From positions 1 to 29,597 of the IMG/VR virus record IMGVR_UViG_3300048061_000193: 29,597 bases of DNA; one strand, 5' to 3'. The stretch's first letter is position 1, and every line of letters begins with the position of its first letter. This document shows, piece by piece, positions 128 to 28,215 of this stretch. The DNA is from a virus. Position numbers and translations under genes: made by a program. Under the pieces are notes generated by a model, which was not told the origin of the DNA, did no database searches, and saw only the letters and a list, made by a program, of their open reading frames with translations.

Positions 128-368
128 GCTGTTGCCGGCGCCATTCTTGTATCACATGACCTTCAGCATTTAGCTGCACTGTGCTTTTGCCGTAGCTTAA
201 ATGTTCCGGTCGCGGTGCTGCGCTATTCCATGGAGCTTCGCCCCTTGCTTCAAGCAGACGTATTGTGCGCTTCAGATTGGCGCGGTCGCAATTTAATTCC
301 CTTGCCGCTCCTGTGATTGATCCCGCCTTAAGATAGGCTCGGACAATCGCCTCTTGCTTCTCGGTCAT
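1..368 (-). CDS. HTH-metallophosphoesterase, N-terminal part (continues at 29470)
   Basis: This is the 5' part of the gene whose 3' part lies at 28711-29470. Joined across the circle it is 1128 nt, or 375 aa. I chose ATG at 368 because it adds 85 in-frame residues before the first methionine visible at the right edge. Residues 1-45 look like a helix-turn-helix (an alanine/glycine turn followed by ELNCDRANLKRTI), followed by a Q-rich linker near residues 75-85. A TTGACA-N17-TAAATA promoter ends 6 nt before this ATG, and an AGGA also lies just upstream. The HTH suggests that the enzyme is delivered to DNA; that is inference. Confidence 0.8.
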   Translation of the reverse strand, partial: MTEKQEAIVRAYLKAGSITGAARELNCDRANLKRTIRLLEARGEAPWNSAAPRPEHLSYGKSTVQLNAEGHVIQEWRRQQPQQQAMQLFVDALCDQARGKGKVKKRRARKTDTSDTLFELDI

Positions 369-374
369 GCTTCC

Positions 375-403
375 TATTTATGCGCATCGCAATTTACTGT
401 CAA
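375..403 (-). promoter_or_regulatory. sigma70-like promoter for the phosphoesterase gene, leaderless geometry
   Basis: TTGACA (398-403), a 17-bp spacer and TAAATA (375-380), which ends 6 nt before the ATG at 368. An AGGA lies within those bases, so weak Shine-Dalgarno use cannot be excluded if transcription starts further up. Confidence 0.55.
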
Positions 404-424
404 TACGCTAACAGTCAGATCTAA

Positions 425-823
425 TTACTTTACTTGAGAAGATCCGAAATAAAATCCGACGATGGCGAGTGCAGTCTGGCGGATCTCTGGCAGGATAACG
501 AATCCCTGCACAGTTTCCCATCTGACGCTCTTAAATAGCCCTAGAAAGCCGTTTGATTGATTTTGGATACTTACCCCTACGTCAGTGAATGCAAAGACGA
601 ATGGGGCTACTACAATCGCAAACATTGTGCATACGACTAGAAAACGGCGAACCAGTACTCCACCCTCACGTTGAGCAGCCCGGTCAGCGGAGTCATCCGC
701 AGTTGCCTGCTTCGCCAGCATTCTCTCGAACATAGCGGTCTGGCTCTGCATTTGCGCGGCGATCAGTTTCATTACGAATCCTGACAAGCCTCCACCGAGC
801 ATAGCTAGCAGTTCAGTTGTCAT
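425..823 (-). CDS. membrane protein, lysis-associated candidate
   Basis: Protein of 132 aa. The N-terminus is a hydrophobic or amphipathic helix (LLAMLGGGLSGFVMKLIAA), the middle is polar, residues 58-79 form a membrane helix (VRRFLVVCTMFAIVVAPFVFAF), and the C-terminus has another hydrophobic stretch (LAIVGFYFGSS). It is the last gene of the tail module. Similar proteins occur in aquatic phages after fibre genes, without known function. A holin-like or membrane-scaffold role is possible. Confidence 0.6.
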   Translation of the reverse strand: MTTELLAMLGGGLSGFVMKLIAAQMQSQTAMFERMLAKQATADDSADRAAQREGGVLVRRFLVVCTMFAIVVAPFVFAFTDVGVSIQNQSNGFLGLFKSVRWETVQGFVILPEIRQTALAIVGFYFGSSQVK

Positions 824-983
824 TCTTAAGCTCTTTGATTACCTTGACTGCTGAGGCAGTCATATAGACTAGGGTAGCGATACCCACAATAAAACCCAGT
901 ACTTCATTGATCGGTGTAAGACTCAACGTAGCCAAGAATCCTCCTGTCCCAAGGGTTGATTTGTAAATAATATCTTCCATCAT
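813..983 (-). CDS. small membrane protein, holin candidate
   Basis: Protein of 56 aa, with ATG at 983 overlapping the previous stop (ATGA) and the stop overlapping the next gene by 11 nt. Residues about 28-47 form one membrane helix (EVLGFIVGIATLVYMTASAV) followed by a basic end (KVIKELKN). Size and position between the fibre gene and a second membrane protein fit a small holin or accessory lysis protein. Confidence 0.6.
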   Translation of the reverse strand: MMEDIIYKSTLGTGGFLATLSLTPINEVLGFIVGIATLVYMTASAVKVIKELKNDN

Positions 984-1210
984 ACTTCGTCACTTTCTAA
1001 TGGAGCATAGCTTTCAAACACTGCGTTCTCCTCGTAGTCATCGAGGTCATATTCCCGTACGTCCAATGCCCACTTGCCGTCAGCCGTAGGCACTGGAGCA
1101 GTCAGCCAGCGTGTGCCTTTGCCTTCAGTCCAGTAAGAGAAGTTCAGGTACTTGCCCTCCTCGTCAGCGCGGTCAATGGCTCCTTGTTCGGTTTCGTAGA
1201 TTAGGTACAT
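980..1210 (-). CDS. small protein downstream of the fibre
   Basis: Protein of 76 aa, acidic, with several aromatic residues (MYLIYETEQ; LNFSYWTEGKGTRWL; YDLDDYEE). Short proteins of this style follow fibre genes in other aquatic phages; the role may be fibre assembly. It starts 2 nt after the fibre stop and its own stop overlaps the next ATG. Confidence 0.65.
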   Translation of the reverse strand: MYLIYETEQGAIDRADEEGKYLNFSYWTEGKGTRWLTAPVPTADGKWALDVREYDLDDYEENAVFESYAPLESDEV

Positions 1211-1212
1211 AA

Positions 1213-4200
1213 TTAAGATAGGGTAATGCCGTACTGGTTGGCGATGTTTGCTTCGATGGCAGGACGATTGGGGGACTGGTCGGAGTTGTAGATAATCATC
1301 TCCTTGGCCGTACCAGCAAACGCGTTGGCTGGTCGTCCGAACACATACGCAATAGTATTAGATGTATTCCCAGCGTCACCAGAAACAATACTTGTTCCGT
1401 TGCTAAAGATTTCGCTGCTTGCTCCGTTTGCGAGATATGTAGCAAGTATTTCTGTGCTAGGATGCGTTCCTCCTGCTAAAGAAACACCGTGGCTCATTAC
1501 ATATTGACCAGTGCCACGTCTACCAGCTGCAGGTAGTGAGCTTCCGCTATAAATAAAGCTTGAATTTACAGTAGCAGAATAAACGGAAAATGTGTTGTAT
1601 GGTTGCGTTGTTAGGCTTGTTGTTAAGACAAAAAAGTCATTAGTACCATCAAAATCAATAGCACCCAAGAACGCGTGAGGCTGACCAGATGTCACCTCGC
1701 CAACAATCTTAGGCTGATTCGCAGCAGTCGTCTGCTCCGCGTCATTGCCACTACCGCTCTGGTCGTACCAAGTCTGCACGAATCCGTTGACTGTATCGTT
1801 AGCAGCAGGGATGTCAGTAATGCTGTAGGTCTCACCGATGTTAGCCTCAATGGCTGTACGGTTGGCTGTTTGGTCGGAGTTGTAGTGAATTAACTCAGAA
1901 ATGTAACCTCTAGTATTATGAGTTGATACTACTACCTTACTGCCAATATAATACTGCGTAGCTGTCACCGTTGAAGCGTCTCCACTTCCATCAATCTCAT
2001 TGGTTCCGTTTCCGAAATAGTTAATATCCGCTGAACCCTCAATAATAGTGTGAAGGTTTAGGCTCTTCTGGAAGTCTATTCCAGCGGAATAAGAATCTGT
2101 GCCCGCTCCCGACTTGTAGCCATTTGTAAAGTCAGAGTTAATGCCAGCAATATAAAGAGATCCTAAGCCGTACAGAAGGGTAGAATTTCTCTTTTGAGCC
2201 GCATTACTACCTGCCGTAACATCATCTGCAAGCGGTTGCCAAGATGCGAAAAATGAAAACGAAGAACCTATATCCGCTGGTGATGTTAGGTATCTTTCGT
2301 CGCTTGAATCATCTGCGAATTTTATAGATGGCTTGTTACGTTTCTGGACAAGGCTGCCATTCACGACAATCTTAGGCTGCTTCGTAGGGTCAGTCTGAGT
2401 TGCGTCATTGGCTGGTGTACTGCCACTCTGGTCGTACCAAGTACTGACTGTACCATCCCGCGAGAAGGCTGCTAGAGAAATGTCGTAGTGATTAGCGATG
2501 TTCTCCTCAATGGCTCTGCGCTTTGTTGACTGGTCGGAGTCGTAGATGATTAGTTCTTGCAACCTCCCGTTAAATTGTCTTCCCGGGGTATCTTGGTCAT
2601 AACCAATCGTTGACTTACTTAGGGTGTTCGAGCCTGCGGTAGTCCAAGTATTTGTTACTGTCTCATTTAGGCTACCATTAACGTGAGTGGTTGAAGCTCC
2701 AGTCTTAATAACTAACGAATACAGAGACTTAGATGATGTTAGATTGTTACCACCAGAAAATACGTTTACAGCAGTATCATCACCATCATACCAAAGCGGG
2801 GTGAGCTTACTCGCAGTATTCCCATAGGCTACCGCAAAACCTCCATTTGTTGAATCAGATGAGTCAAATATAGTTCTAAGATTTGATGCGGTATTATCAT
2901 CAATGGAGGCAACTGTAAAGGCTCCGTATGTTAATGAGACTGGGCTAAAGCCAGTTATGTCAAGCTGTGTAGTTGAACCATCAAAATCAATACCACCAGT
3001 AACCAGATTCCCATCCTCAACAATCTTAGGCTGCTTTGCAGTATCCGTCTGCACCGCGTGATTGTCGCTGCCTGATTGGTCGTACCAAGTCCGAACGTGT
3101 CCGTCTGCTGAGGTCTGTGTCAGCGTGATGTTTGTGATAGATACATCGGCAACTGCTGTTCCTCCTGTGCGGAAGTAGATGCCCGATGTTTCGTCTGGAT
3201 TTAAAGTTACGGAATTAGAACCAAGAACTAACGATGTTTGCGCAAACGGGAGTGAGCTAGCCAGAGTTATACCAGAAAGACTGCCAGAAGTTAATACAAC
3301 ATCAAAGGTTGCAACATAAGTGCCTGCCCCTACGTCAGCTGGTGCTGCAAGGCGCTTAAACCCCGTAGAACCTTCATTATTAACCGAGAAGTCAAAGCTT
3401 GTTGCTGTCTCGTTACTAACATTGCCAGCGAGACCTCCAGACTCTGCCTGTAAATCCAGCCTATCAACATCCTCATTCACCCAATCCTCCAGCGTACCAT
3501 CAGCAACCTCGGATGCAGTAAAGGATTGGACTGCGTCATCGCTTGAACGGCGTGTCTGTACTACGTACTTGCCAGATGGAAGATATTCGGTGTCCCCAAG
3601 GCTTTCGTAGATTTTGATGTTGGATATATTCCCTTCCCACGGACCTTGTGCCCACAAAAGTAAAGTGCTACCACTGCCAGTACCCCACTCTCCAATAACA
3701 TCAATAGTCCCACTCCCACTTAGTTCCTGCTGGTAGACAATGTCCCCTCCCGCAGCAGACGTAGAAGACTGTGTGCCGAGAGCTATTACAAACACACCAC
3801 TTACATTTGTATCATAGGTCAGGGTTAAACGGCACTGTGCCCCATCGGGTATATCAGGTAATGACTTACCTGCGGTGAAAGCTGTCGCACCAGAACAATT
3901 CAGAAACCCATCAACTACAGACCATCCTGCGTTCAAGCTCCACCCATCAGTCCCAGCACTGAAGTCGGACTCATACTCAAGGGTATCACCAGCGTATTCC
4001 CACTGATTGGTTCCTAAGCTACGCAAGGAGTAAGCCGCTGCTGCTCCTGTAGCTTGGTCAAGAGGAAGCTCGTTCTCAGCGTATGAGATTACCTTTACGT
4101 TGCGGATGTAGATTACGTCGCCAGATGTTCCAGTGAACGAGACACTACTTCCATCTGCGTGTTGTATCCATAGCCTATCATTACGTGCTACCCCACTGGC

Positions 4201-4959
4201 GGAGTGTGACTCCCAAACATCGGGCGTTGGTGTAATTATTCCAGTGGATATACCTTCATACCCGCTTAAAACTCTAAACCCGTCTGTGCTTGTATTGGTT
4301 GAAGGAATTTTAACCTCAAATTCAACCGTATATGTTTTACCAATCACAAATGATGAACTCCTACTGGTATCGTGTGGACCAGTTGTTGCGTCACTGGTAA
4401 TAACAAGTTCACTAGATACAGCAGAAGTTGTGCTACCCCGCAGCCCAGTAAACCCATCAACCCCCTCACTGAAGTCACTTTCGTATATGACCTCCTCGCC
4501 CTTAACAAAACCCTCCAGCGTACCGTCAGTAACCTCGTCAGCGGTAAAGCCCTCGGTCTCTCCGTCCACGTTGCGGCGTACCTCTACAACGTCACCAGTG
4601 AAGTCCTCCTTCAGTTTACGCAGGGAGTAAGCGGCGGCTGCTTCAATCAAAGCACCATCGCGCTCACCTGTATTCGTGTCCAGTTCCCGAAGGTCAAGCG
4701 GCAGCGTAGGCTGCTCATTGACCCAGCGAGCCATCGTTCCGTCACTGACTTCAACAGATGAAAAGTCGCGCTCTGTATTGTCGCTCTCGCGGCGAACGCG
4801 AACAACTCTGCTCCCATCATCCCAGCTTTTAAGCCTGCGCAGCGAATAAGCTGCTGCTGCGCCCTCAAATTGATTGAGAAGCGGCGTCTTAACGCCAGAC
4901 AGCGCGACCGGAGTCACAACGCTGCTGACTACGTTGGAAACTTGATTGGAGCCAGTCAT
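1213..4959 (-). CDS. large repeat tail fibre / receptor-binding protein with LamG-like domains
   Basis: Protein of 1248 aa. Three copies of an AAAAYSLRxL module lie near residues 34, 108 and 306, each leading to a (V)RR-(S/N)-D and a DGT-(M/L) strand. Two beta-sandwich domains, each starting YESDFS, are inserted at about 158-300 and within the third copy (about 330-475). Then come three long repeats, each opening TWYDQSGS (about residues 625, 838, 1062), passing through QPKIV and FDG, and closing with (I/H)Y(D/N)SDQ...AIE-NI. The latter resemble LamG/concanavalin-like sugar-binding domains of phage adhesins. It probably binds host glycans. Confidence 0.8.
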   Translation of the reverse strand: MTGSNQVSNVVSSVVTPVALSGVKTPLLNQFEGAAAAYSLRRLKSWDDGSRVVRVRRESDNTERDFSSVEVSDGTMARWVNEQPTLPLDLRELDTNTGERDGALIEAAAAYSLRKLKEDFTGDVVEVRRNVDGETEGFTADEVTDGTLEGFVKGEEVIYESDFSEGVDGFTGLRGSTTSAVSSELVITSDATTGPHDTSRSSSFVIGKTYTVEFEVKIPSTNTSTDGFRVLSGYEGISTGIITPTPDVWESHSASGVARNDRLWIQHADGSSVSFTGTSGDVIYIRNVKVISYAENELPLDQATGAAAAYSLRSLGTNQWEYAGDTLEYESDFSAGTDGWSLNAGWSVVDGFLNCSGATAFTAGKSLPDIPDGAQCRLTLTYDTNVSGVFVIALGTQSSTSAAGGDIVYQQELSGSGTIDVIGEWGTGSGSTLLLWAQGPWEGNISNIKIYESLGDTEYLPSGKYVVQTRRSSDDAVQSFTASEVADGTLEDWVNEDVDRLDLQAESGGLAGNVSNETATSFDFSVNNEGSTGFKRLAAPADVGAGTYVATFDVVLTSGSLSGITLASSLPFAQTSLVLGSNSVTLNPDETSGIYFRTGGTAVADVSITNITLTQTSADGHVRTWYDQSGSDNHAVQTDTAKQPKIVEDGNLVTGGIDFDGSTTQLDITGFSPVSLTYGAFTVASIDDNTASNLRTIFDSSDSTNGGFAVAYGNTASKLTPLWYDGDDTAVNVFSGGNNLTSSKSLYSLVIKTGASTTHVNGSLNETVTNTWTTAGSNTLSKSTIGYDQDTPGRQFNGRLQELIIYDSDQSTKRRAIEENIANHYDISLAAFSRDGTVSTWYDQSGSTPANDATQTDPTKQPKIVVNGSLVQKRNKPSIKFADDSSDERYLTSPADIGSSFSFFASWQPLADDVTAGSNAAQKRNSTLLYGLGSLYIAGINSDFTNGYKSGAGTDSYSAGIDFQKSLNLHTIIEGSADINYFGNGTNEIDGSGDASTVTATQYYIGSKVVVSTHNTRGYISELIHYNSDQTANRTAIEANIGETYSITDIPAANDTVNGFVQTWYDQSGSGNDAEQTTAANQPKIVGEVTSGQPHAFLGAIDFDGTNDFFVLTTSLTTQPYNTFSVYSATVNSSFIYSGSSLPAAGRRGTGQYVMSHGVSLAGGTHPSTEILATYLANGASSEIFSNGTSIVSGDAGNTSNTIAYVFGRPANAFAGTAKEMIIYNSDQSPNRPAIEANIANQYGITLS

Positions 4960-4965
4960 TGGGCC

Positions 4966-5271
4966 TTACTGGAGCTTGGATGTCTTGAGGATGCCAGTGA
5001 TGACAATGTTAATGTCTGGAGAAGTCGCGCCAGATAGCGTTAAACGCAAATCCGCTTTTCCGACTTCAACATTAAGCGCACCATCTGCGGTGATTGTCGC
5101 TGCATCTCCAAGTGCATTGGTAGCGGCGAACCATGTAGTGCCGTTATCGTAGCTTAATTCAAACGCCAGGCTGCCACCGCCGAAGGTTCCGAATGCGCCA
5201 ACATTCAATTTTCCTTTAATTGGTAGCGTACCAGTCGAGCCGTTACTTGTGAGATTGTATGTTTGAGCCAT
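4966..5271 (-). CDS. small beta-rich virion protein, possible decoration
   Basis: Protein of 101 aa, Gly/Thr/Ala-rich and beta-predicted, without signal peptide. The pattern (FELSYDNGTTWFAATNALGDA) is that of a small virion decoration or fibre-associated domain. It has its own TTGACA promoter directly ahead of the largest fibre gene. Confidence 0.55.
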   Translation of the reverse strand: MAQTYNLTSNGSTGTLPIKGKLNVGAFGTFGGGSLAFELSYDNGTTWFAATNALGDAATITADGALNVEVGKADLRLTLSGATSPDINIVITGILKTSKLQ

Positions 5272-5278
5272 GTTGATA

Positions 5279-5307
5279 TTTTTATGTGATTGCTGTTAAA
5301 TTGTCAA
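5279..5307 (-). promoter_or_regulatory. sigma70-like promoter for the 5271 gene, near-leaderless
   Basis: TTGACA (5302-5307), a 17-bp spacer and TAAAAA (5279-5284), which ends 7 nt before the ATG at 5271. Confidence 0.5.
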
Positions 5308-5322: not shown

Positions 5323-5326
5323 GTTA

Positions 5327-6433: not shown

Positions 6434-6452
6434 GATGTTTTATTTGTTAAAT

Positions 6453-10296: not shown

Positions 10297-10301
10297 TTAC
10301 G

Positions 10302-10335
10302 AAAAAGCCCCACCCGCTTGGGGCAGGTGAGGCTT
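10302..10335 (-). terminator. intrinsic terminator between tail tube and chaperone genes
   Basis: AAGCCTCACC pairs with GGTGGGGCTT in the minus-strand RNA (10 bp with one G-U), followed by TTT and CG. The T-run ends about 6 nt before the ATG at 10296, so read-through is needed for the chaperone and tape measure, a simple way to lower their dose. Confidence 0.8.
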
Positions 10336-11430: not shown

Positions 11431-11436
11431 GATTCC

Positions 11437-11465
11437 GATTCAATAGTTTTTATGTTAATTGTCAA
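11437..11465 (-). promoter_or_regulatory. TTGACA promoter-like element for the 11430 gene, leaderless geometry
   Basis: TTGACA (11460-11465), a 17-bp spacer and TGAATC (11437-11442), which ends 6 nt before the ATG at 11430. The -10 is a poor match; the -35 position is exactly that of the other members. Confidence 0.45.
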
Positions 11466-12551: not shown

Positions 12552-12557
12552 GCTGTG

Positions 12558-12586
12558 ATATTGTCTTGTTTTGTATGTATTTGCAA
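12558..12586 (-). promoter_or_regulatory. weak promoter-like element before the 12551 gene
   Basis: TTGCAA (12581-12586), a 17-bp spacer and CAATAT (12558-12563), which ends 6 nt before the ATG at 12551. It has the same geometry as the TTGACA set and lies just after a terminator, but the -35 matches only 4 of 6 bases. Confidence 0.35.
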
Positions 12587-12884: not shown

Positions 12885-12927
12885 AATAAATAAAAAGTAA
12901 AGGCAGCCACCCATAAGGATGGCTGCC
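12885..12927 (-). terminator. intrinsic terminator after the major capsid gene
   Basis: GGCAGCCATCC-TTAT-GGGTGGCTGCC forms an 11-bp stem in the minus-strand RNA (one G-U pair, which would be a C-A mismatch on the other strand), followed by TTTACTTTTTATTT. This orientation test supports minus-strand use. Confidence 0.85.
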
Positions 12928-17091: not shown

Positions 17092-17126
17092 CTAGTAAGT
17101 TTTACAATGCACACGATATGCTTTTA

Positions 17127-17132
17127 TGTCAA
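17127..17132 (-). promoter_or_regulatory. TTGACA -35-like element upstream of the 17091 gene
   Basis: An exact TTGACA whose first base lies 41 nt before the ATG at 17091. CATTGT follows after 17 bp as a weak -10. Spacing to the ATG is longer than in the leaderless set. Confidence 0.35.
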
Positions 17133-19590: not shown

Positions 19591-19685
19591 TTAGTAAAAC
19601 TTATATGGCTAATTGTAAAATTCAAAATTCGATTTTTTTACACGAAGTCGCTACACCCAAAATTGACGATTGTAAAAAAGATTCC

Positions 19686-19889
19686 TTATGTCCCGCGTTC
19701 ATACTGGTCGGCCCTGGCATGCGATGAACTGATGCTTTCAACAGCGCGAACGATCACATCTGCTCGCGTTGTCTTGTCTCGCTTCGCAGCAGCTTCGATC
19801 TGTTCAATCGTAATGATTGGCAGACGAAAGGTTGTCATCTTGCGTCTGCCTCGATGTGGATCTGAGTAATGTGGCGTTTCCTTGTCCAT
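19686..19889 (-). CDS. ribbon-helix-helix (CopG/Arc-type) transcriptional regulator
   Basis: Protein of 67 aa. RKMTTFRLPIITIEQIEAAA (residues 16-35) gives the beta strand and first helix, and KRDKTTRADVIVRAVESI (36-53) the second helix, of a ribbon-helix-helix DNA-binding dimer. I chose ATG at 19889 over the upstream TTG because the TTG is part of the -35 hexamer. Repression of its own promoter through the palindrome at 19891-19903 is likely. Half-sites TGTAAA/TTTACA at 19614, 19637 and 19671 suggest that it also acts on the packaging operon. Confidence 0.75.
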   Translation of the reverse strand: MDKETPHYSDPHRGRRKMTTFRLPIITIEQIEAAAKRDKTTRADVIVRAVESISSSHARADQYERGT

Positions 19890-19895
19890 GTTTAC

Positions 19896-19925
19896 ACTGT
19901 AAATGCGAATGACTGTCGCTGTCAA
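19896..19925 (-). promoter_or_regulatory. promoter of the RHH gene, leaderless, with operator over the -10
   Basis: TTGACA (19920-19925), an 18-bp spacer and TACAGT (19896-19901), which ends 6 nt before the ATG at 19889. The perfect palindrome TTTACA-C-TGTAAA (19891-19903) covers the -10 and the predicted start site, so a bound dimer would block RNA polymerase. Confidence 0.65.
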
Positions 19926-20122
19926 CTTTCAGAAGATTTGTCTCCATGCTGTATCAACCCCAGCCCCTCTAATTTTTTGAATCCCTTGGTCTTGCACTCA
20001 TGCAGGAATCTGTTGCGAGATACCATTGCCCGGAATTCTGCGTCAGTCTGTCTGGACTCCAAGAAATCTAAAACTGATGTGGACTCTGGCGGTCTGCTCA
20101 GATAACTGGCTTCCTCAATCAT
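19922..20122 (-). CDS. paralogue of the HTH regulator's N-terminal module (no DNA-binding part)
   Basis: Protein of 66 aa. Residues 18-62 align without gaps to residues 13-57 of the 173-aa HTH protein (24 identical of 45, including TxAEF, RN, ECK, KGF). The two helix-turn-helix domains of the longer protein are absent. If the shared module mediates self-association, this protein could bind the full-length regulator and block or retune it, as short dominant-negative forms do; that is inference. It has its own promoter and lies beside another small regulator. Confidence 0.65.
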   Translation of the reverse strand: MIEEASYLSRPPESTSVLDFLESRQTDAEFRAMVSRNRFLHECKTKGFKKLEGLGLIQHGDKSSES

Positions 20123-20129
20123 TGATATT

Positions 20130-20159
20130 TCTTTAATTACAAAAGCCCCGAATTGTCAA
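20130..20159 (-). promoter_or_regulatory. sigma70-like promoter for the 20122 gene, near-leaderless
   Basis: TTGACA (20154-20159), an 18-bp spacer and TAAAGA (20130-20135), which ends 7 nt before the ATG at 20122. The -10 is weak, but the -35 is exact and its distance from the ATG (37 nt) matches the set. Confidence 0.5.
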
Positions 20160-20531: not shown

Positions 20532-22553
20532 TTATTTGTCCTTAATTACAGCAAAGATGTTTCCGGCAGTGATTCTGACCCTTTTTGCGTCCTTCAGCTC
20601 CTTAATGTAACGCTGAACAGTGCGCACAGTTACACCATGCTCATCCGAAAACTCGGCGTTAAAATCGGATGGATTTGCCCCTTCAGGTAGCCTCCGAACC
20701 AGTGCTTTATAGACCGTAGAAGCGCTCACTTTTTGCCCATGTTTGCGCAAACGATTTGCATCAAGATCGCCCCTGGATCTGAACAGTGGGAAGTCCCACT
20801 CGACTACAAATGGCTCGATGCCGCCAAAGTTTCTCAGCGCAGCATGCACAGTAAAACAGTTGTCCTCCTCGTGCGCAGTCAGACCCATAATGGTGTCTGG
20901 ATCGCGAGCAAAGACGCCAGATCCACTGATGCGATCGAGTGGGTCTTTCTCTGATTGATTGCCTTTTGAGTAGTGCGCGCCAAACGCTGCTGCCGCTCCT
21001 GTGCGCTCAACAAGCGCCTCAACTTCATTCATAAGCAGGCCCATATCGCCTGCGCTGTTTTCGTCGCGATCGCCGAGTGCTTTATATATAGGATCGATGC
21101 AAATGAGCGCCAGATTGTCATCTGCGACCTTTTCCTCCAGCGCAGCCAGAATCACCCGTAAATCGTTGCAAACGCCTCTGAGCGACCAAATACAAAGATT
21201 ACTCGGCACTTCAATGCCCATGGCATCGCATACACTTTTGACTCGCTGTAAGAAAAACTCATGCGGAACTTCAAAGTTAAGAAAGATGACGTCCTTGCCT
21301 GTATGTACACATTCGCGGCCGAACCATGGCGTTCCAGACGCAACGCATGCTGCAAGATTCAGCAACGTCCAGGTCTTGTATGACTTACTGCCGCCACCAA
21401 GCACCATCTTCGTCCCTCGGTGCAGCAGACCATCAATTAGCACAGGATAGCGCTGCATGATTCGCTTGCTCAAATCTGCCGGAATCTCATGCCCTCGCGT
21501 CCATTCTGGCAGCTTGCTAATCATCGCAGCTTTGCGCTCCTCGATTGGCGCATCATCTGGCACACTCGGATCTTGGAATGGATCTTTGCCATAAAAGTCG
21601 CGACCGCTCATTGTTGGCTCATTGTCGCCAAATTCTTCTGCGAGCGCGATTGTGGCGTTCTTAAAATCTCCACTGTATTCAAGTGTAGTTAGCAGCGAAA
21701 ATGCTGAATAGTTTTCTGAAGGCTCTAGCGGCGGCGCATTGTCGGTAAAGCAATAAAAACTGCCGTCAGTGCGAAGTGTCCCAGAAACTCCCCGCTCTTT
21801 GCCAGGTCGCGTGCAATGCGTCTCGCTGCTGTTGCCGTTGCCTATTTTCCATCCTGCTTGTGCGAGAATAGCAGCCGATCGCTCTCGGATGTCTGGCGCT
21901 GCCATGTAGCGATCTCCGATGCGATCTGAATCACCTGGAGCTTTGTGATGCTTTGGCTCATTAACAACTGGCGCGATTGGTAGCTCAATAGCATCTGGCC
22001 AGTAATGTGCCTCGCCGTCCATGCTCAAAAAGCATAAGCGCGCGATGTCCTTGCCGCTGTCATCTGCTTCGATGCCGTACATGTCATACATGTAAGCCTT
22101 GGCTGCTTGGAATGCTCGCAGATGATTTTCCGGATCTTGCGGTATCGCCAATATGACTTTTAATCCATTCCCAGATGGCGAAACAAATGCAGCGATGATG
22201 TAAAGATCGTCGCGCAGTCGATCAATAATGCCAGAAGCGTTTTCTACGCCGTCAAAGTCCATGCAGATCATCCCGGATGCTTCAATAAGCTCGGATGATC
22301 TGCGCTTGTTAAACGTACCGCAAAACAGCACGCCTGGCAGTCTGCGCTTTAGGTCGCTGGCTCGATCTTTGTCTCCTGCTGCGACTGCGACTCTGACTTC
22401 ATTGATGACGCTGGAGAATCTGCCTTCTCCTGTGCGAATCCACTTGATGATTTTTTCAAGCTCGTAGTGGTCTGTTTTGGTGTCCTGCGCGGAGGAGACC
22501 ACGCTGATGAGCCTAGATCCATATCCATTTGTTTCTCTCGTTCTAACTGGCAT
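20532..22553 (-). CDS. primase-helicase fusion (BT4734/VirE-type N-terminus, RepA-like AAA)
   Basis: Protein of 673 aa. Residues 15-140 resemble the BT4734/VirE-type primase-associated domain, with MICMDFDGV at 95-103 and FVSPSGNGLKVIL at 123-135. Residues 360-590 are a RepA-like hexameric helicase with Walker A GGGSKSYKT (386-394) and Walker B LALICIDP (481-488), then GAHYSKGNQSEKDPLDRISG. Residues 605-655 are a winged-helix-like DNA-binding end. It should unwind and prime DNA at the phage origin. The start is upstream of the VSSAQDTK core, so ATG at 22553 is the likely one. The repeat-rich region directly downstream is the natural candidate target. Confidence 0.85.
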   Translation of the reverse strand: MPVRTRETNGYGSRLISVVSSAQDTKTDHYELEKIIKWIRTGEGRFSSVINEVRVAVAAGDKDRASDLKRRLPGVLFCGTFNKRRSSELIEASGMICMDFDGVENASGIIDRLRDDLYIIAAFVSPSGNGLKVILAIPQDPENHLRAFQAAKAYMYDMYGIEADDSGKDIARLCFLSMDGEAHYWPDAIELPIAPVVNEPKHHKAPGDSDRIGDRYMAAPDIRERSAAILAQAGWKIGNGNSSETHCTRPGKERGVSGTLRTDGSFYCFTDNAPPLEPSENYSAFSLLTTLEYSGDFKNATIALAEEFGDNEPTMSGRDFYGKDPFQDPSVPDDAPIEERKAAMISKLPEWTRGHEIPADLSKRIMQRYPVLIDGLLHRGTKMVLGGGSKSYKTWTLLNLAACVASGTPWFGRECVHTGKDVIFLNFEVPHEFFLQRVKSVCDAMGIEVPSNLCIWSLRGVCNDLRVILAALEEKVADDNLALICIDPIYKALGDRDENSAGDMGLLMNEVEALVERTGAAAAFGAHYSKGNQSEKDPLDRISGSGVFARDPDTIMGLTAHEEDNCFTVHAALRNFGGIEPFVVEWDFPLFRSRGDLDANRLRKHGQKVSASTVYKALVRRLPEGANPSDFNAEFSDEHGVTVRTVQRYIKELKDAKRVRITAGNIFAVIKDK

Positions 22554-22963: not shown

Positions 22964-23265
22964 AAAGCTTTTATTACGTCCTTAAGCGCGTCCCGGCAGT
23001 TGCTTGCTTGGCGTTCGAGTACTTTCATTATCCGCTTCTGGGGAATGATTGCTTGCATGAACTGGTCGTAGTGCAAGTCCATCCACTCAGCCACAGCTTC
23101 CCGCCATGTTAGCTGCCTGCCTCTCTCAGCTTCGATCCACTTGTGCGAGCGGATCTCGTCCTTTACTAGCCTGCACATATTAAAGTGCAGCTTGTTATGC
23201 TTACTGGAGTCGAATGGGACGTAGCCCTCGGACTCCAGGAGATAGTCAATTACTGGTATTTTCAT
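22960..23265 (-). CDS. conserved-looking hypothetical phage protein
   Basis: Protein of 101 aa, helical and basic, without a domain I can name. It contains an HFNMCRLVKDEIRSHKWIEA segment followed by GRQLTWREAVAEWMDLHY, a style seen in uncharacterised phage proteins. It is the first gene after the repeat-containing control region, and its stop overlaps the next start as ATGA. Confidence 0.6.
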   Translation of the reverse strand: MKIPVIDYLLESEGYVPFDSSKHNKLHFNMCRLVKDEIRSHKWIEAERGRQLTWREAVAEWMDLHYDQFMQAIIPQKRIMKVLERQASNCRDALKDVIKAL

Positions 23266-23283
23266 AGTGTTTGGATTGTTACT

Positions 23284-23415
23284 TGAGAGATTAACTCTCG
23301 GTTGATTTCGGCTGTAGTTTTGTCACAAGTTGAGGGGGGTAATTTTTGACAAATTTGGGTAGTTGACTGGCTAGTTTTGAAACAAATTTGGATGCTTTTT
23401 TGTCCCAAATTTAGG
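23284..23415. promoter_or_regulatory. repeat-containing control region upstream of the 23265 gene
   Basis: This non-coding stretch carries CAAATTTGG at 23350 and 23383, and CAAATTTAGG at 23406. Each is centred on a near-palindrome, with spacings of 33 and 23 bp, close to whole helical turns. Nearer the gene is an inverted repeat, GAGAG-ATTAA-CTCTC at 23285-23299. It looks like an operator or iteron array for the operon starting at 23265. Confidence 0.45.
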
Positions 23416-23788
23416 TCATTTTGGGTGTACTATTGTCACTAAATGTCCTCCAGTGACGTTGGTTAATTGGTGTTAAAATAAGAGACACCCCAGCGGCGAT
23501 CAACTCCGCTGCTCCCTGTTGTTTCAGGCGAGTAACCGTCACTTGCATTACTGGTTCGCTGTGCAGGCGAACGGGCCTACGTGGTGCAGCATATCCGATA
23601 AGAGGCAAGGATAGGATATAGGGTGAAGTGAAGCAGGAACGGACAGCGCTATCCTTTTCAGAGTACGGGTTCCCAAGGTTGCGAGTCTTTTGTGAAGTTG
23701 ACTCCCCGACCTCGCCTAAATGCCCGACCGCGAATCCGCAATCCTGCACACATTTAAGCCGTGTATCTACTCTGCCTGCTAAATTCAT
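23411..23788 (-). CDS. orphan 125-aa ORF, possibly overlying a structured RNA
   Basis: I do not recognise this ORF. It has 125 codons, a basic product, no visible domain or membrane segment, and no coupling to its neighbours. The DNA under it is rich in perfect short hairpins: GTTCGC/GCGAAC near 23555-23575, CAGCGG/CCGCTG at 23492-23512, GGTGT/ACACC at 23470-23490, and GAGTC/GACTC near 23682-23705. This could be a true gene or a non-coding structured element on either strand. Gene confidence is only moderate. Confidence 0.35.
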   Translation of the reverse strand: MNLAGRVDTRLKCVQDCGFAVGHLGEVGESTSQKTRNLGNPYSEKDSAVRSCFTSPYILSLPLIGYAAPRRPVRLHSEPVMQVTVTRLKQQGAAELIAAGVSLILTPINQRHWRTFSDNSTPKMT

Positions 23789-23809
23789 ATTTCTATAAGT
23801 CGTGGTTAA

Positions 23810-23949
23810 TCAGGAATTCTGCAATTCAGCTATCTCCTTGTGCAGCTCGGCATTTGCCTCGTGCATTTCGGCGAGCATCTTGCGCAGTTCAGCAAGCTGT
23901 CCCTTAGCTCCGCTATCTCGTCGTAGTTAGTTACTAGTGCTTCACTCAT
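23810..23949 (-). pseudogene. frameshifted coiled-coil ORF (or programmed -1 frameshift)
   Basis: ATG at 23949 overlaps the upstream stop and opens a 39-aa frame (MSEALVTNYDEIAELRDS...) that degenerates into Cys/Arg-rich sequence and stops at 23830. Moving one base back near the AGGGAC site (about 23895-23905) opens a frame that reads on to 23810 as a good heptad repeat (QLAELRKMLAEMHEANAE). The natural protein would be about 46 aa of continuous coiled coil. Either a G is missing from a G-run (mutation or sequencing error), or ribosomes shift. Confidence 0.5.
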
Positions 23950-24170
23950 AGTTCTGCTCTCCATAAATTAAAAACATCGCGATTGCTTTTGGTATCTTCG
24001 CCCCAGAACGCCTGCCGGAATATAATATCAGTCTCAGTGCTGTTAAAGTGCTGGCCGTTGTCATAGTGTTCCGTATCGACGATAAAGCGTAGAATCTTGT
24101 TCTCGCTGCGTAGTCTGCTGTTTTCCTCGGTCAATTTATCGACCAGATCTTGCTGTGTATGTTTTCCCAT
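23946..24170 (-). CDS. hypothetical protein with N-terminal coiled coil
   Basis: Protein of 74 aa. Residues 8-30 form a short coiled coil (LVDKLTEENSRLRSENKIL), followed by an aromatic-rich C-terminal part. Not recognised. It is in the small-ORF operon; its stop overlaps the next ATG (ATGA). Confidence 0.6.
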   Translation of the reverse strand: MGKHTQQDLVDKLTEENSRLRSENKILRFIVDTEHYDNGQHFNSTETDIIFRQAFWGEDTKSNRDVFNLWRAEL

Positions 24171-24339
24171 AGTTTATCTCGTTATCAATTTCGAGTCTGC
24201 TTGAATATTGGCACTGCATCGATGGAGCATCGTCCAATAAATAATCCAAGCGCTTTCTGTCTTTCCATAGTTCAAATATTAGCTGGCGCTGGTGAGTGTT
24301 TAACTCAATCAACTGCTGCTTTGTCAACTCAGCGCTCAT
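24136..24339 (-). CDS. hypothetical small helical protein
   Basis: Protein of 67 aa. The N-terminal half is helical and charged (KQQLIELNTHQRQLIFELWKDRKRL). No recognised family. It starts with an ATGA overlap on the HTH gene and overlaps the next gene by 35 nt, so it sits in a tightly packed set of small early ORFs. Confidence 0.6.
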   Translation of the reverse strand: MSAELTKQQLIELNTHQRQLIFELWKDRKRLDYLLDDAPSMQCQYSSRLEIDNEINYGKTYTARSGR

Positions 24340-24857
24340 TGCTTAATCAGTTTATGAGTCTTGTATGAGTATTTGTAACCAATCTCGGCGAGTCGCCTCT
24401 TGATCGCGCATGTTGTACACTTCATGCGATCCGCGACCTGGTTTATCGTCATATCCTTTTCGCTAATCATTTTTACAGCTTTAGCAACATTTACCTTGGT
24501 GGATCGTTTTGGATCGAGCTTGATGCCCTCTTTTTTCATCCAGTCGGAAATGCTTTTGTAAGATATGTTTCCAAGCGCTGCCCTGATGGCGTCCATTTTC
24601 ATCCCCTTCTCGATCATCTTAGCAGCCTTGTGCGCCATCTCTTTCTTTTGCTCGCTTGTGTAACGAGCGCCAGTGTTTCTTTTCTGCTTATCATTGCTGG
24701 CAATAATCCCCAGCTTTTTCATGCGCTCAAATCCTTTGCTTTTGCATTCAGCAAGTAATTTGTTGCGCGCGATCATTGCATCAAATTCTGCTTCAGTTTG
24801 ATGCTTCTGGAGCATATCCAGAATGCGCGTTGCTTCATTTTTATCAACTTCTGTCAT
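24336..24857 (-). CDS. helix-turn-helix regulator with duplicated N-terminal module
   Basis: Protein of 173 aa. Residues 13-57 form a module shared with the separate 66-aa protein at 19922-20122 (24 of 45 aligned residues identical by eye). Residues 66-112 and 122-160 each look like a helix-turn-helix of the homeodomain/recombinase type (MKMDAIRAALGNISYKSISDWM; MTINQVADRMKCTTCAIKRRL). It is probably a DNA-binding regulator of early or late transcription. It is coupled by ATGA overlaps on both sides. Confidence 0.65.
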   Translation of the reverse strand: MTEVDKNEATRILDMLQKHQTEAEFDAMIARNKLLAECKSKGFERMKKLGIIASNDKQKRNTGARYTSEQKKEMAHKAAKMIEKGMKMDAIRAALGNISYKSISDWMKKEGIKLDPKRSTKVNVAKAVKMISEKDMTINQVADRMKCTTCAIKRRLAEIGYKYSYKTHKLIKQ

Positions 24858-25339
24858 ATATTGTTTCTCCTTCCGTATTCAGCGAGCAGTGCCGCATCGA
24901 CAAATCCGTCAAATGCTATTTTGCAGCGCTCATTTCGTCGCCAGTCCTCGTCTGGCCAGATTTGAGTGGCAGCTTTCAGTGCTGCCGCTTTAGTGTCGTA
25001 CTTACCGCTTGGCCGCGACCAAAAAGCAGATTGCCACTTTCTGGCCGCGACTGTGTGGTAGGGTAAACGATTAACAATGGTCAGCGTTTTAATAACAGCG
25101 AACGAATAGGTCATTGACCGCAGACCGGCAGCGCTCGGAGCATGCCCGCCAGGATCTTCAATGACTAGCACACAATCGAGCAAACCCCATGACTCGAAAA
25201 TGCTGCTTAGTTTATCGATGTCGATTTCCCTGCGCTTTCCATTGCTGATTGTTGGCATGGCAATCTTATCCTCAATTTTTCGATCACTCATGCGCACAAT
25301 CGCGCCGTCCAGCCCGCAGTCAATTCCTATGTATTCCAT
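24854..25339 (-). CDS. RuvC-like Holliday junction resolvase
   Basis: Protein of 161 aa with an RNase H-like fold. IGIDCGLDGAI gives Asp7, VLVIEDPGG gives Glu61, and DGFVDAALLAEY gives Asp144 and Asp148, together the four acidic residues of RuvC-type resolvases. The enzyme cuts branched DNA, resolving recombination intermediates and clearing branches before packaging. It lies in the replication operon, with its stop overlapping the start of the HTH gene by 4 nt. Confidence 0.85.
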   Translation of the reverse strand: MEYIGIDCGLDGAIVRMSDRKIEDKIAMPTISNGKRREIDIDKLSSIFESWGLLDCVLVIEDPGGHAPSAAGLRSMTYSFAVIKTLTIVNRLPYHTVAARKWQSAFWSRPSGKYDTKAAALKAATQIWPDEDWRRNERCKIAFDGFVDAALLAEYGRRNNI

Positions 25340-25341
25340 TA

Positions 25342-25416
25342 TTATTTGGGAAAATTTATCACAATCATGGCGCCCATAAAAAACGCCAGAATCAGTAGTG
25401 CTAGTGTTTCAAACAT
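25342..25416 (-). CDS. 24-aa hydrophobic membrane peptide
   Basis: The start overlaps the coiled-coil gene stop (TAATG), and the stop lies 2 nt before the resolvase ATG, so it fills the gap exactly. Residues 5-21 are one hydrophobic helix (LALLILAFFMGAMIVI). Function unknown. It may be a membrane anchor, a small regulator, or a spacer ORF that couples translation. Confidence 0.5.
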   Translation of the reverse strand: MFETLALLILAFFMGAMIVINFPK

Positions 25417-25598
25417 TACTCGCGCTCCTCCTGCTGTATTAAAACTTTGTCCTGGATGCGAGCGATCTTTGCTTTCAATTTCTCAATATCTGAATTGAGA
25501 ATTTCATTCTGCTTAGTGAGCGCATCACACGCCTTGGTCATTGCTTTGAGGCCCCTGTTTAGAACCTGCTCCGAGTCAGCTTTATATACTGATGACAT
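25416..25598 (-). CDS. small coiled-coil protein
   Basis: Protein of 60 aa, of which residues 25-60 are a heptad-like coiled coil (LTKQNEILNSDIEKLKAKI). I placed the start at 25598 because a clear Shine-Dalgarno, GGAGGA at 25604-25609, lies about 5 nt upstream; the longer in-frame option would overlap the previous gene. It is one of the best canonical ribosome-binding sites in the genome. Function unknown. The stop overlaps the next start as TAATG. Confidence 0.7.
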   Translation of the reverse strand: MSSVYKADSEQVLNRGLKAMTKACDALTKQNEILNSDIEKLKAKIARIQDKVLIQQEERE

Positions 25599-25617
25599 TA
25601 TTTCCTCCATTTTGATG

Positions 25618-25911
25618 TTAATCAATAAGACCAGCCTCTTTGCCAATCTTATTGTAAATATTGCGATAAAAACGATCTCGCTCGATGCGCTTGTAATGGC
25701 GCTTCATTGCATGCGTAATCGTTGATCGTTCTCTGCCAAATTCTTCACTAATTGAAGCATCGGTTCTCGACATGAATTGCTTTGCCAAAGCATAGCATGC
25801 GTCCCGCACAACAACCAGTTCAGCCTTGCGGCATGAGCTTGATAGCTTTAATCGATCGCAGCCAGTTACTTCAGCCGCTACGTCGAGTAATTCTTTAATT
25901 GTGACAATCAT
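25618..25911 (-). CDS. stand-alone DnaA domain IV (DnaA-box-binding) protein
   Basis: Protein of 97 aa covering only the C-terminal DNA-binding domain of DnaA. The segment FGRERSTITHAMKR (about residues 58-71) corresponds to the DnaA signature GRDHTTVLHA, preceded by the helix containing RKAELVVVRDACYALAKQF. No AAA+ domain is present. In DnaA this domain reads 9-bp DnaA boxes, so the phage protein probably binds such boxes in its own genome (27900-27928) or competes with host DnaA. It is coupled by overlap to the nuclease gene. Confidence 0.8.
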   Translation of the reverse strand: MIVTIKELLDVAAEVTGCDRLKLSSSCRKAELVVVRDACYALAKQFMSRTDASISEEFGRERSTITHAMKRHYKRIERDRFYRNIYNKIGKEAGLID

Positions 25912-26696
25912 GATCTTGGATCAAAGTTTTTGATGTAACGCCATAATGCGCACATTGACAAGAACGCATCATACTCTTTCAGCAATTGGTCTGGCTTATA
26001 AACAGCCGTTTCAATCCGTCCGGGCTCAGTCGTGCTGATGTACACGTTGGCTCCGTAGCATCGATCCAATGCGCCAAAAGCTGCATGACCATAAGCTGCA
26101 ATCTGCATCGGCTGAAAGTCGTATGGTGTAACTTTTTCGCCTTCGCGCGTTTTGCGTGTTTTGAAGTCGATAATGATGTTGCCAGATCCGTAGTTCGCCA
26201 GAAGATCCACGCGGCCTGCATAGCCCTCTGATCTGTTCACAACAACGTCCTCGCGTCTGATGTTTTGCAGATTCAAGCTGTGCAGATACTCCATTGTTGG
26301 CTGCACATATTGCTGCAAGTCTGGATGGCAGTCCGCGCCATCAAATGCTGCATCGATTGAATCGTGAATGCGCGTTCCTAAGTCTGCGGCCTCTGTAACC
26401 TCAGATCGACTGCGCTGCAAGATCCTGTCGTGGTATCGATCATCTGATTCGCCATCGTTGCGCGCTGTAGTTAGCGCTGCCTCAATAGCCTTGTTAAGTT
26501 TCCACTTATCCAGTCCGGGCTTTGCCATGATGCCGAAGATGGTTGTTACTGACGGCAGCAGCGTATGCTTTCGCGCATCGCGAAGCGTTGTGCTGCGCTG
26601 CCCTCCATCTTTTTTTAGCATGGTGTATGCAGGCTTGCCGTCTAACGTGTACCAGTGACTGTCAGACAAGTTTGATTCTTTTTCTAATATTGCCAC
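25908..26696 (-). CDS. PD-(D/E)XK-family exonuclease
   Basis: Protein of 262 aa starting with GTG, with a GGAG about 9 nt upstream acting as ribosome-binding site. The nuclease core is visible as GYAGRVDLL around residues 160-166, followed by IIIDFKTRK around 175-183, giving the D...D-x-K metal site. A downstream QIAAYGHAA helix is typical of the RecB/Cas4/lambda-exonuclease group. Such phage enzymes resect DNA ends for recombination. It follows the SSB-like gene, and its stop overlaps the start of the DnaA-like gene (ATGA), forming a replication-recombination operon. Confidence 0.8.
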   Translation of the reverse strand: MAILEKESNLSDSHWYTLDGKPAYTMLKKDGGQRSTTLRDARKHTLLPSVTTIFGIMAKPGLDKWKLNKAIEAALTTARNDGESDDRYHDRILQRSRSEVTEAADLGTRIHDSIDAAFDGADCHPDLQQYVQPTMEYLHSLNLQNIRREDVVVNRSEGYAGRVDLLANYGSGNIIIDFKTRKTREGEKVTPYDFQPMQIAAYGHAAFGALDRCYGANVYISTTEPGRIETAVYKPDQLLKEYDAFLSMCALWRYIKNFDPRS

Positions 26697-26726
26697 AATA
26701 AAAACTCCATTAAGTGTTGGTGTTTA

Positions 26727-26765
26727 ATCTGGATGCGCTGCGCAGCGCGCAACGCAGAGCCAGAT
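26727..26765 (-). other. GC-rich hairpin between the SSB-like and nuclease genes
   Basis: An outer stem ATCTGG/CCAGAT (26727-26732 with 26760-26765) encloses the perfect 14-bp palindrome GCGCTGCGCAGCGC (26735-26748). No T-tract follows on the minus strand, so it is not a standard intrinsic terminator. It may stabilise or process the mRNA upstream of the nuclease gene. Confidence 0.45.
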
Positions 26766-26783
26766 AACAATCGATTTTTAGTA

Positions 26784-27383
26784 TTAGAATGGGCAATCTG
26801 CGTCACTATCAACGCCTGGGCTCCATGCTGGTGGTGCAGATGCTGGTGCTGCTGCTGCTGGCGCTGCTGCTGCTGGCGCTGTTGGCGCTACGGGCGCTGC
26901 TGGCATTGCAGGAGCTGCTGGCTGCGAAAACTGCTCCGCAGGAATTACTTGAGATGTGTAATCAGCAAGCGATGTCTTAGGAGGAGCAATGCGCACAATC
27001 TTGTTGTACAATTTGCCCATCTGGGAAGTCACCTGCTCAATGCTGACAACAGCGCCCTTGCCTTTAAGCTCACAGTAATCCCAGCCCATCTTTGGTGGCT
27101 GACCCAGCCATGAGCTTAGGAATTTTACAAGCGCGCTTTTAGGGCTTCCGCTGATCTTCATCTCAAAAGTCTGCACTTTGTAGAGCCGACCATCTTGAGC
27201 TTTGAAGCCAAAGAGAAATCGAGTGACATCGATCTGCTCAGTTTCTTCGGATTGATACTTGCGACGAGTCACTCCGAACTCGTCTGCGACATCTAAGCAG
27301 GTCGCGATATATTCGCCTGCTGGTGCAACATCCTCAATATCAAAGCCGGAGGATGAGTCGGCTGGTGCTGTTAGTGTAGCCAT
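26784..27383 (-). CDS. single-stranded DNA-binding protein, SSB-like
   Basis: Protein of 199 aa. Residues 1-135 form a compact beta-rich domain with an alternating hydrophobic pattern. Residues 150-187 are a low-complexity Ala/Pro linker, and the protein ends DSDADCPF, an acidic tip with a terminal Pro-Phe like the protein-interaction tail of bacterial SSBs. I do not see a textbook OB-fold signature, so the assignment rests on the tail, the linker, and the position beside the nuclease and replication genes. The start codon is 1 nt after the endolysin stop. Its start region shares an 18-nt identical stretch with that of the major capsid gene. Confidence 0.6.
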   Translation of the reverse strand: MATLTAPADSSSGFDIEDVAPAGEYIATCLDVADEFGVTRRKYQSEETEQIDVTRFLFGFKAQDGRLYKVQTFEMKISGSPKSALVKFLSSWLGQPPKMGWDYCELKGKGAVVSIEQVTSQMGKLYNKIVRIAPPKTSLADYTSQVIPAEQFSQPAAPAMPAAPVAPTAPAAAAPAAAAPASAPPAWSPGVDSDADCPF

Positions 27384-27384
27384 A

Positions 27385-27786
27385 TTATTTTATTTTATGT
27401 TTTATCGTTTTGCCATTGGCGAGATCAGTCGCGCCCATGGCGAGAAGTTGTTGTTTTACTTTTGCCCAATAAGCATCAGTGCTGCTGCGCTTGTAACCAT
27501 TCGGCCCGCCGTTATGGATGCGAGCTATGTCCTCGGCTGTGACATCTCTGCCAAGTCGTTGAGTTGTTGCATAGCGTTGCATATATGCTTCAAACATCTG
27601 AATGGCTGCCACTGAGTCAAATGCTTCGCGATGGCTCCAGTCATGATGTGATTGTTCGCTGGCATCTTTACAGTATGCTTCGCGGATCTGCAAGCACCCA
27701 TAAGCTTGCTCTTTTTTATTAAGCGCAAACTCGTTGCCGCTGGATTCGATCATTATGATCGCGAGTATGAGTTGAAATGGGATCAT
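27385..27786 (-). CDS. lytic transglycosylase-like endolysin (SLT family)
   Basis: Protein of 133 aa resembling the soluble lytic transglycosylase fold. It has a hydrophobic first helix, ESSGNEFAL with the likely catalytic Glu14, then QAYGCLQIR (the counterpart of GAxGLMQ), and a C-terminal RIHNGGPNGYKRS that matches the NGG segment of this family. The family cleaves the glycan strands of peptidoglycan and forms 1,6-anhydro-muramic ends. The N-terminus is helix 1 of the domain rather than an export signal, so a holin is expected. It lies between the membrane peptide and the SSB-like gene, away from the tail module. Confidence 0.8.
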   Translation of the reverse strand: MIPFQLILAIIMIESSGNEFALNKKEQAYGCLQIREAYCKDASEQSHHDWSHREAFDSVAAIQMFEAYMQRYATTQRLGRDVTAEDIARIHNGGPNGYKRSSTDAYWAKVKQQLLAMGATDLANGKTIKHKIK

Positions 27787-27866
27787 AGCGCGCAGTAAAA
27801 AAGGATGCCGACAAGAGCGCCAGCAATGATGCAGATGGGTAGTTGTAGGTATAGGTATTTATTCAT
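27783..27866 (-). CDS. 27-aa single-pass membrane peptide, candidate holin or lysis accessory
   Basis: A very short ORF. After a polar start (MNKYLYLQLP), residues 11-27 are one hydrophobic helix ending at the stop codon. The stop overlaps the start of the lytic transglycosylase as ATGA, the coupling style used throughout this genome, which is the main reason to believe the ORF. Its position directly before a muralytic enzyme without a signal peptide suggests help with lysis, for example as a pinholin-sized peptide. It is smaller than characterised holins, so the role is tentative. Confidence 0.55.
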   Translation of the reverse strand: MNKYLYLQLPICIIAGALVGILFYCAL

Positions 27867-27899
27867 ATTGTATCTGGTTTAGTTTCGCTCTCATGAGCT

Positions 27900-27967
27900 T
27901 GTGGATAACAATGCACACGTTATTCACCCGTACAAGTAAAAAGATGAAAAACTTTTTTCACTCATCC
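27900..27967. other. DnaA-box pair with AT-rich flank, candidate replication origin or DnaA-responsive regulatory site
   Basis: TGTGGATAA at 27900-27908 is a perfect DnaA box (TTATCCACA) on the minus strand. TTATTCACC at 27920-27928 on the plus strand matches TTATNCACA except at the last base. The boxes face each other with centres 20 bp apart and are followed by an A/T-rich tract to about 27960, which overlaps the end of the 27958 gene. The phage also encodes a DnaA domain IV protein (25618-25911). The box matches are visible in the sequence; origin function is inference. The site could instead regulate the lysis genes immediately downstream. Confidence 0.5.
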
Positions 27968-28179
27968 CAGTCCAGATCCACGTCAACATCAGCATCGAGC
28001 CATTCGCGCTCATCCTCAATCATTGTAAGCGCCTCCTGGTACAGCGCCCGCTCGACGATCTCGTTGTTTCCGTCGTGAAAAACGCTGCCATCGTCGTATT
28101 GCACGACGATGGCGTAGTTTTCAAACATTTCGCCCAGAATGGCTTTTGCCTTTTGCAGTGCTTCCCATTCTGCTGTCAT
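27958..28179 (-). CDS. small acidic hypothetical protein
   Basis: Protein of 73 aa that I do not recognise. It is helical and acidic, and ends in a run dominated by aspartate and tryptophan (DADVDVDLDWDE). Strongly acidic small phage proteins can be DNA mimics or host-protein inhibitors, but nothing here proves that. It has its own TTGACA/TATAGT promoter, so it can be expressed separately from the kinase, and it lies next to the DnaA-box region. It is the last gene before a non-coding gap of about 90 bp. Confidence 0.7.
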   Translation of the reverse strand: MTAEWEALQKAKAILGEMFENYAIVVQYDDGSVFHDGNNEIVERALYQEALTMIEDEREWLDADVDVDLDWDE

Positions 28180-28185
28180 GTCTCA

Positions 28186-28215
28186 ACTATAGATTATCAA
28201 GCGCCATGATGTCAA
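28186..28215 (-). promoter_or_regulatory. sigma70-like promoter for the 28179 gene, leaderless geometry
   Basis: TTGACA (28210-28215), an 18-bp spacer, then TATAGT (28186-28191). The -10 ends 6 nt before the ATG at 28179, so transcription would begin at or within a base or two of the start codon. The -35 is embedded in the 3' end of the dNMP kinase gene. Confidence 0.6.

What the first reader, a model, noticed from the sequence alone, without database searches (positions are those of the whole stretch)
368..28215. A genome-wide set of leaderless promoters: TTGACA 35-37 nt before ATG
Exact TTGACA hexamers lie at 398-403, 5302-5307, 11460-11465, 19920-19925, 20154-20159 and 28210-28215. The first T is 35, 36, 35, 36, 37 and 36 nt before the start codons at 368, 5271, 11430, 19889, 20122 and 28179. 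A -10-like hexamer (TAAATA, TAAAAA, TGAATC, TACAGT, TAAAGA, TATAGT) follows after 17-18 bp and ends 6-7 nt before ATG. Since transcription begins about 7 nt after a -10, these mRNAs would start at or next to AUG. Weaker members (TTGCAA, TTGAAT) hold the same position before 12551 and 19590. One hexamer can arise by chance; six at one position cannot easily.
Basis: partly seen in the sequence, partly recalled or inferred. Interest (0 to 1): 0.85.

Follow-up and report, generated by a model that had tools for sequence, protein, structure and literature searches.

The report
Leaderless promoters in a Verrucomicrobia phage
This phage, a relative of one that infects marine Verrucomicrobia, has ordinary bacterial-type promoters placed so close to several genes that the messenger RNA should begin right at the start codon; the layout is conserved in related phages and fits what is known of their host group.

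Summary
All six TTGACA hexamers lie 35-37 nt before ATG, and among all hexamers at all distances TTGACA at 35-37 is the strongest signal. The window is a circularly closed phage related to Verrucomicrobia phage P8625 (terminase 58% identical). P8625 has TTGACA exactly 36 nt before four annotated ATGs and 35 before a likely mis-annotated one. In about 130 related loci the hexamer stays 34-38 nt (some 39-42 nt) before orthologous ATGs although the spacer has diverged. Three unrelated phages have none in 217 gene starts. Promoter genes lack Shine-Dalgarno sites, have an A/T-only position at -12 (28 of 28), and have C at -1 (15 of 28 against 51 of 311), as expected if transcription starts at the A of ATG. 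Host-class genomes show the same geometry about twofold above control leader lengths. Akkermansia, also Verrucomicrobia, has about 10% leaderless start sites by experiment (PMC4782308). I conclude that these are host-sigma70 leaderless promoters heading operons: a new case of a known kind. The -10 boxes are degenerate, some relatives imply a leader of about 5 nt, and no start site has been mapped.

The parts
369..403 (-). Leaderless promoter of the gene starting at 368 (metallophosphoesterase/exonuclease that runs across the contig junction): TTGACA 403-398, spacer 17, TAAATA 380-375 (or CATAAA, spacer 15), 6 nt, ATG
   Evidence: C at -1
5272..5307 (-). Leaderless promoter of gene 5271-4966: TTGACA 5307-5302, spacer 17-18, TAAAAA/AAAAAT 5284-5278, ATG
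   Evidence: an orthologue in L094 has TTGACA at 39 nt; C at -1
11431..11465 (-). Leaderless promoter of gene 11430-10930 (gp15 orthologue): TTGACA 11465-11460, which contains the TGA stop of the upstream gene; degenerate -10 (TGAATC or TTGAAT); ATG
   Evidence: conserved in P8625, L022, L031, L032, L049, L113, L131, L134, L139, L143, L158 and others; lost in L003-L010
19890..19925 (-). Leaderless promoter of gene 19889-19686 (weak match to transcriptional-regulator families): TTGACA 19925-19920 containing the upstream TGA stop, spacer 18, TACAGT 19901-19896, 6 nt, ATG
   Evidence: C at -1
20123..20159 (-). Leaderless promoter of gene 20122-19922: TTGACA 20159-20154, spacer 18, TAAAGA 20135-20130, 7 nt, ATG; overlaps the end of the gene ending at 20133
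   Evidence: also in the near-identical L002
28180..28215 (-). Leaderless promoter of gene 28179-27958: TTGACA 28215-28210, spacer 18, TATAGT 28191-28186, 6 nt, ATG; overlaps the end of the dNMP-kinase gene. In P8625 gp31 the promoter lies at the same place in gene order, just after the dNMP kinase
   Evidence: best sigma70 match in its half of the window, 11 of 12
17092..17132 (-). Near-leaderless promoter of gene 17091-16396 (gp08 orthologue, upstream of the portal gene): TTGACA 17132-17127, 41 nt before ATG, -10 CATTGT; predicted leader about 5 nt
   Evidence: TTGAC kept 34-42 nt before ATG in nearly all 35 orthologues with diverged spacers
12552..12586 (-). Weaker candidate promoter of gene 12551-12225: TTGCAA 35 nt before ATG, CAATAT, C at -1; preceded by a hairpin and T run
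   Evidence: absent from the nearest relatives, but an L125 orthologue has TTGACA-N16-TACTAT-N6-ATG
19591..19625 (-). Weak candidate promoter of gene 19590-18919 (upstream of the large terminase): TTGAAT 35 nt before ATG
   Evidence: only; not supported further

Best explanation
The TTGACA boxes are the -35 elements of promoters read by the host's housekeeping sigma factor. With a -10 element at about -13 to -8 from the start codon, RNA polymerase should start on the A of the ATG, or 1-2 nt from it, giving messages without a 5' leader for the first gene of several operons. Such messages need no Shine-Dalgarno site and would be translated by ribosomes that bind a 5'-terminal AUG with initiator tRNA. 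The arrangement follows the host group: Verrucomicrobia use Shine-Dalgarno sites sparingly and make leaderless transcripts. It also lets the phage pack a promoter into a gap of about 35 nt, where the upstream gene's TGA stop can lie inside TTGACA. Shown: position, conservation, -10 and -1 composition, absence of Shine-Dalgarno sites. Inferred: start-site position, sigma factor, mode of translation.
For: Position: 6 of 42 starts at 35-37 nt, P 2.4e-11, top of all hexamers. P8625: TTGACA at 36 nt for gp08, gp15, gp22, gp31, and 35 nt before an in-frame ATG eleven codons upstream of the annotated gp07 start. Relatives: of 351 dereplicated orthologous starts, 28 have TTGACA at 34-38 nt and 12 at 39-42, against about 0.3 per position elsewhere. 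Gene starts at these ATGs are fixed by conserved N-termini. Initiation signals in the 28: W at -12 in 28 of 28 (0.57 elsewhere), W at -13 in 25 and at -11 in 24; C at -1 in 15 of 28 against 51 of 311, P 2.4e-5; Shine-Dalgarno 0 of 28. Controls: lambda, Flavobacterium phage FCV-1 and Paenibacillus phage Lily have 0 of 217 starts at 34-42 nt. Host class: TTGACA-N16-18-TANNNT followed by ATG after 5-8 nt 530 times, 11-14 nt 292, 25-28 nt 274, in 76 genomes; 53 genomes favour the near spacing and 12 the far. In genome G073, 12 of 109 genes have a near-TTGACA at 34-38 nt against 1-4 in control bands, and no Shine-Dalgarno excess. Literature: Akkermansia muciniphila about 10% leaderless start sites against 0.4% in E. 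coli (PMC4782308); Akkermansia and Verrucomicrobia bacterium IMCC26134 are Shine-Dalgarno-scarce (PMC10783764).
Against: The -10 hexamers are degenerate and often lack the final T; a plain sigma70 scan finds no more promoter-like sites than shuffled sequence. Orthologues of 17091 often have the -35 at 39-42 nt, pointing to a leader of about 5 nt. In the genome that carries a P8625-like phage contig (G001) the host leaderless signal is weak, and in its family the near pattern (91) is above the far one (40) but little above the reversed-pattern control (71). The orthologous promoters are not fully independent. No transcript data exist.
Confidence: 0.82

Rival explanations
1. These are sigma70 promoters with very short leaders (3-12 nt): transcription starts a few bases before the AUG, and translation begins as on other Shine-Dalgarno-less short-leader messages.
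For: Twelve of 40 dereplicated promoters have TTGACA at 39-42 nt, with the best -10 about 10-12 nt from ATG. The -10 placement is loose.
Against: The main peak is at 35-37, the best -10 gap is mostly 5-8 nt, and C at -1 is specific to the 34-38 nt group (15 of 28, against 2 of 12 in the 39-42 group).
Confidence: 0.12
2. TTGACA is a binding site for a phage or host regulator at a fixed distance from the start codon, not a -35 element; the real promoters lie elsewhere.
For: P8625 and some relatives carry a 19-bp palindrome, GTATCCA-N5-TGGATAC, between TTGACA and ATG, so regulators probably do act here. -10 boxes are weak.
Against: The hexamer is exactly the sigma70 -35 consensus, the A/T block 23 nt downstream is where a -10 belongs, and host-class chromosomes show the same pairing. 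The palindrome is absent from the window and most relatives while TTGACA stays.
Confidence: 0.04
3. Chance, or a by-product of gene layout: TTGACA contains TGA, and short fixed gaps after an upstream stop would place it at a constant distance.
For: In 7 of 40 promoters the upstream gene's TGA lies inside TTGACA, and in others the stop directly precedes it.
Against: 33 of 40 have no such overlap. No other TGA-containing hexamer shows an independent effect in an all-hexamer scan, three control phages have none, and the hexamer outlives spacer divergence.
Confidence: 0.02

Closest known systems
Leaderless genes with a -10 box about 12 nt before the start codon in Actinobacteria, Deinococcus-Thermus and others (PMC3160421, PMC12340547)
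   Same: Sigma70-type -10 just before ATG, no Shine-Dalgarno site, predicted start at the AUG
   Different: There the -10 is the main signal and a -35 is often absent; here the exact TTGACA -35 is the strong part and the -10 is degenerate
Leaderless transcripts of Akkermansia muciniphila, a Verrucomicrobium, about 10% of mapped start sites (PMC4782308)
   Same: Same bacterial phylum as the likely host; -35 and -10 elements seen
   Different: Host chromosome genes with mapped starts; the phage has no start-site data
Thermus phage phiYS40 (review PMC3594737)
   Same: A phage whose middle and late messages are largely leaderless
   Different: Unrelated host; phiYS40 is reported to raise IF2 and lower IF3, nothing of which can be seen here; here only operon heads carry the signal
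Verrucomicrobia phage P8625 (NC_029047, PMC4642752)
   Same: Homologous terminase, portal, capsid and gene order; the same TTGACA-36-ATG promoters
   Different: Adds a GTATCCA-N5-TGGATAC palindrome in several of them; the genome paper does not mention promoters

Membership tests
Sigma70-type leaderless promoters | -35 element at a fixed distance of about 35-36 nt before the start codon | tested here: met
Sigma70-type leaderless promoters | -10 element 16-18 nt after the -35 and 6-7 nt before the start codon | tested here: inconclusive
   A/T block at -13 to -11 and W at -7, but hexamers are degenerate and some gaps are 10-12 nt
Sigma70-type leaderless promoters | Pyrimidine-purine initiator at the AUG (C at -1, A at +1) | tested here: met
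   C at -1 in 15 of 28 against 51 of 311, P 2.4e-5; C or T together only P 0.07
Sigma70-type leaderless promoters | No Shine-Dalgarno site | tested here: met
   0 of 28 promoter genes; window 4 of 42 against 2 control, lambda 43 of 71
Sigma70-type leaderless promoters | 5' end of the transcript at the AUG | not testable with these tools
   Needs RNA from infected cells
P8625-like verrucophages | Homologous terminase, portal, protease and capsid in shared order | tested here: met
   Terminase 58% identity; shared order of orthologues
phiYS40-like leaderless expression programme | Most middle and late messages leaderless | tested here: inconclusive
   Signal at about 7 of 42 starts; these look like operon heads, but transcript boundaries are unknown, so the leaderless share of messages cannot be counted
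phiYS40-like leaderless expression programme | Phage shifts the IF2/IF3 balance | not testable with these tools
   Needs infection experiments

The most novel reading that the evidence does not exclude
A whole clade of verrucophages drives its structural operons from leaderless promoters with near-consensus -35 and weak -10 boxes, which in part of the clade are switched by a phage regulator binding a palindrome (GTATCCA-N5-TGGATAC) between -35 and AUG, so that late expression is tied to leaderless translation.
Probability: 0.25. Interest if true: 0.55.

Novelty: new member of a known kind. Interest (0 to 1): 0.4.

Why it matters
Leaderless transcription is known in several bacterial phyla and a few phages, but I found no report of it for phages of Verrucomicrobia, a phylum abundant in the sea and gut with very few phage systems. 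A conserved set of about 30 such promoters gives a ready panel for testing how leaderless messages are initiated and translated in a Shine-Dalgarno-poor lineage. It also helps annotation: the P8625 gp07 start is probably eleven codons too far downstream, and promoter position can fix start codons in related contigs.

Tried and rejected
Generic sigma70 promoter scan: no excess over shuffles, so position relative to ATG is the informative signal, not consensus alone. Counting ATGs after every TTGACA in relatives without gene starts gave a noisy peak, because coding stretches such as the capsid TTGACATCGAAGTTCCAGG...ATGGCG mimic the spacing; replaced by orthologue-anchored counts. Genome-wide E. 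coli pattern counts could not be run because that genome is not held; a 50-kb stretch and three phages served as controls. The host-genome test in G001, whose assembly includes a P8625-like contig, was weak, and in its family the reversed-pattern control is nearly as high as the signal, so the host argument rests on the class-wide counts, G073 and the published Akkermansia data. A search for the P8625 palindrome in the window found none.

Full report
What the window is. The 29,597-base window is a whole virus record whose first 127 bases repeat at its end, so it is a circularly closed or terminally redundant phage genome. Nearly all plausible genes lie on the minus strand. The large terminase is 58% identical to that of Verrucomicrobia phage P8625, a lytic siphovirus of a marine strain near Coraliomargarita akajimensis (PMC4642752). 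Three searches of viral contigs brought in about 130 related loci.

Noticed in passing
1-127 and 29471-29597: Perfect 127-bp direct repeat of the contig ends: a circularly closed assembly. The ORF starting at 368 continues across the junction into the ORF listed as 29583-28711 (exonuclease/metallophosphoesterase), so the 29583 start is an artefact.
   Followed up: yes
L047 (P8625) 5426, 10750, 15573, and L036, L130, L131: 19-bp palindrome GTATCCA-N5-TGGATAC or variants between TTGACA and ATG of late-gene promoters; similar palindromes also occur inside P8625 genes (plus strand 8089; minus-strand hits at reverse-complement positions 22127 and 24788). It may be an operator of a phage regulator. 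Absent from the window.
   Followed up: partly
L047 4637-4705: P8625 gp07 is probably annotated eleven codons too short: TTGACA lies 35 nt before an in-frame ATG at 4672.
   Followed up: yes
12902-12927 and 10307-10327, minus strand: Terminator-like hairpins with T runs directly before or across start codons (ATG 12914 lies inside the hairpin; ATG 10296 follows the T run). P8625 gp18 has the same layout.
   Followed up: no
L042, L048 (and L021) upstream of the gp08 orthologue: Inverted repeat CCCCGC ... GCGGGG spans the promoter and start codon (CCCCGCTTGC...GTAGCATGCGGGG in L048 and L021), so a leaderless message would lack the upstream arm while a leadered one would fold over its own start codon.
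   Followed up: no
19922-20122 and 24336-24857: The 66-aa protein and the N-terminus of the 173-aa protein look paralogous (QTDAEFRAMVSRNRFLHECKTKGFKKLEGLG against QTEAEFDAMIARNKLLAECKSKGFERMKKLG).
   Followed up: no
19686-19925: The 67-aa gene matches transcriptional-regulator families weakly (PHROG 3887, E 8e-5), and its own promoter holds the dyad TTTACAGTGTAAA; possible autoregulation.
   Followed up: no
L048: A P8625-like phage contig sits in an assembly labelled Planctomycetaceae; either wider host range or mis-binning.
   Followed up: no
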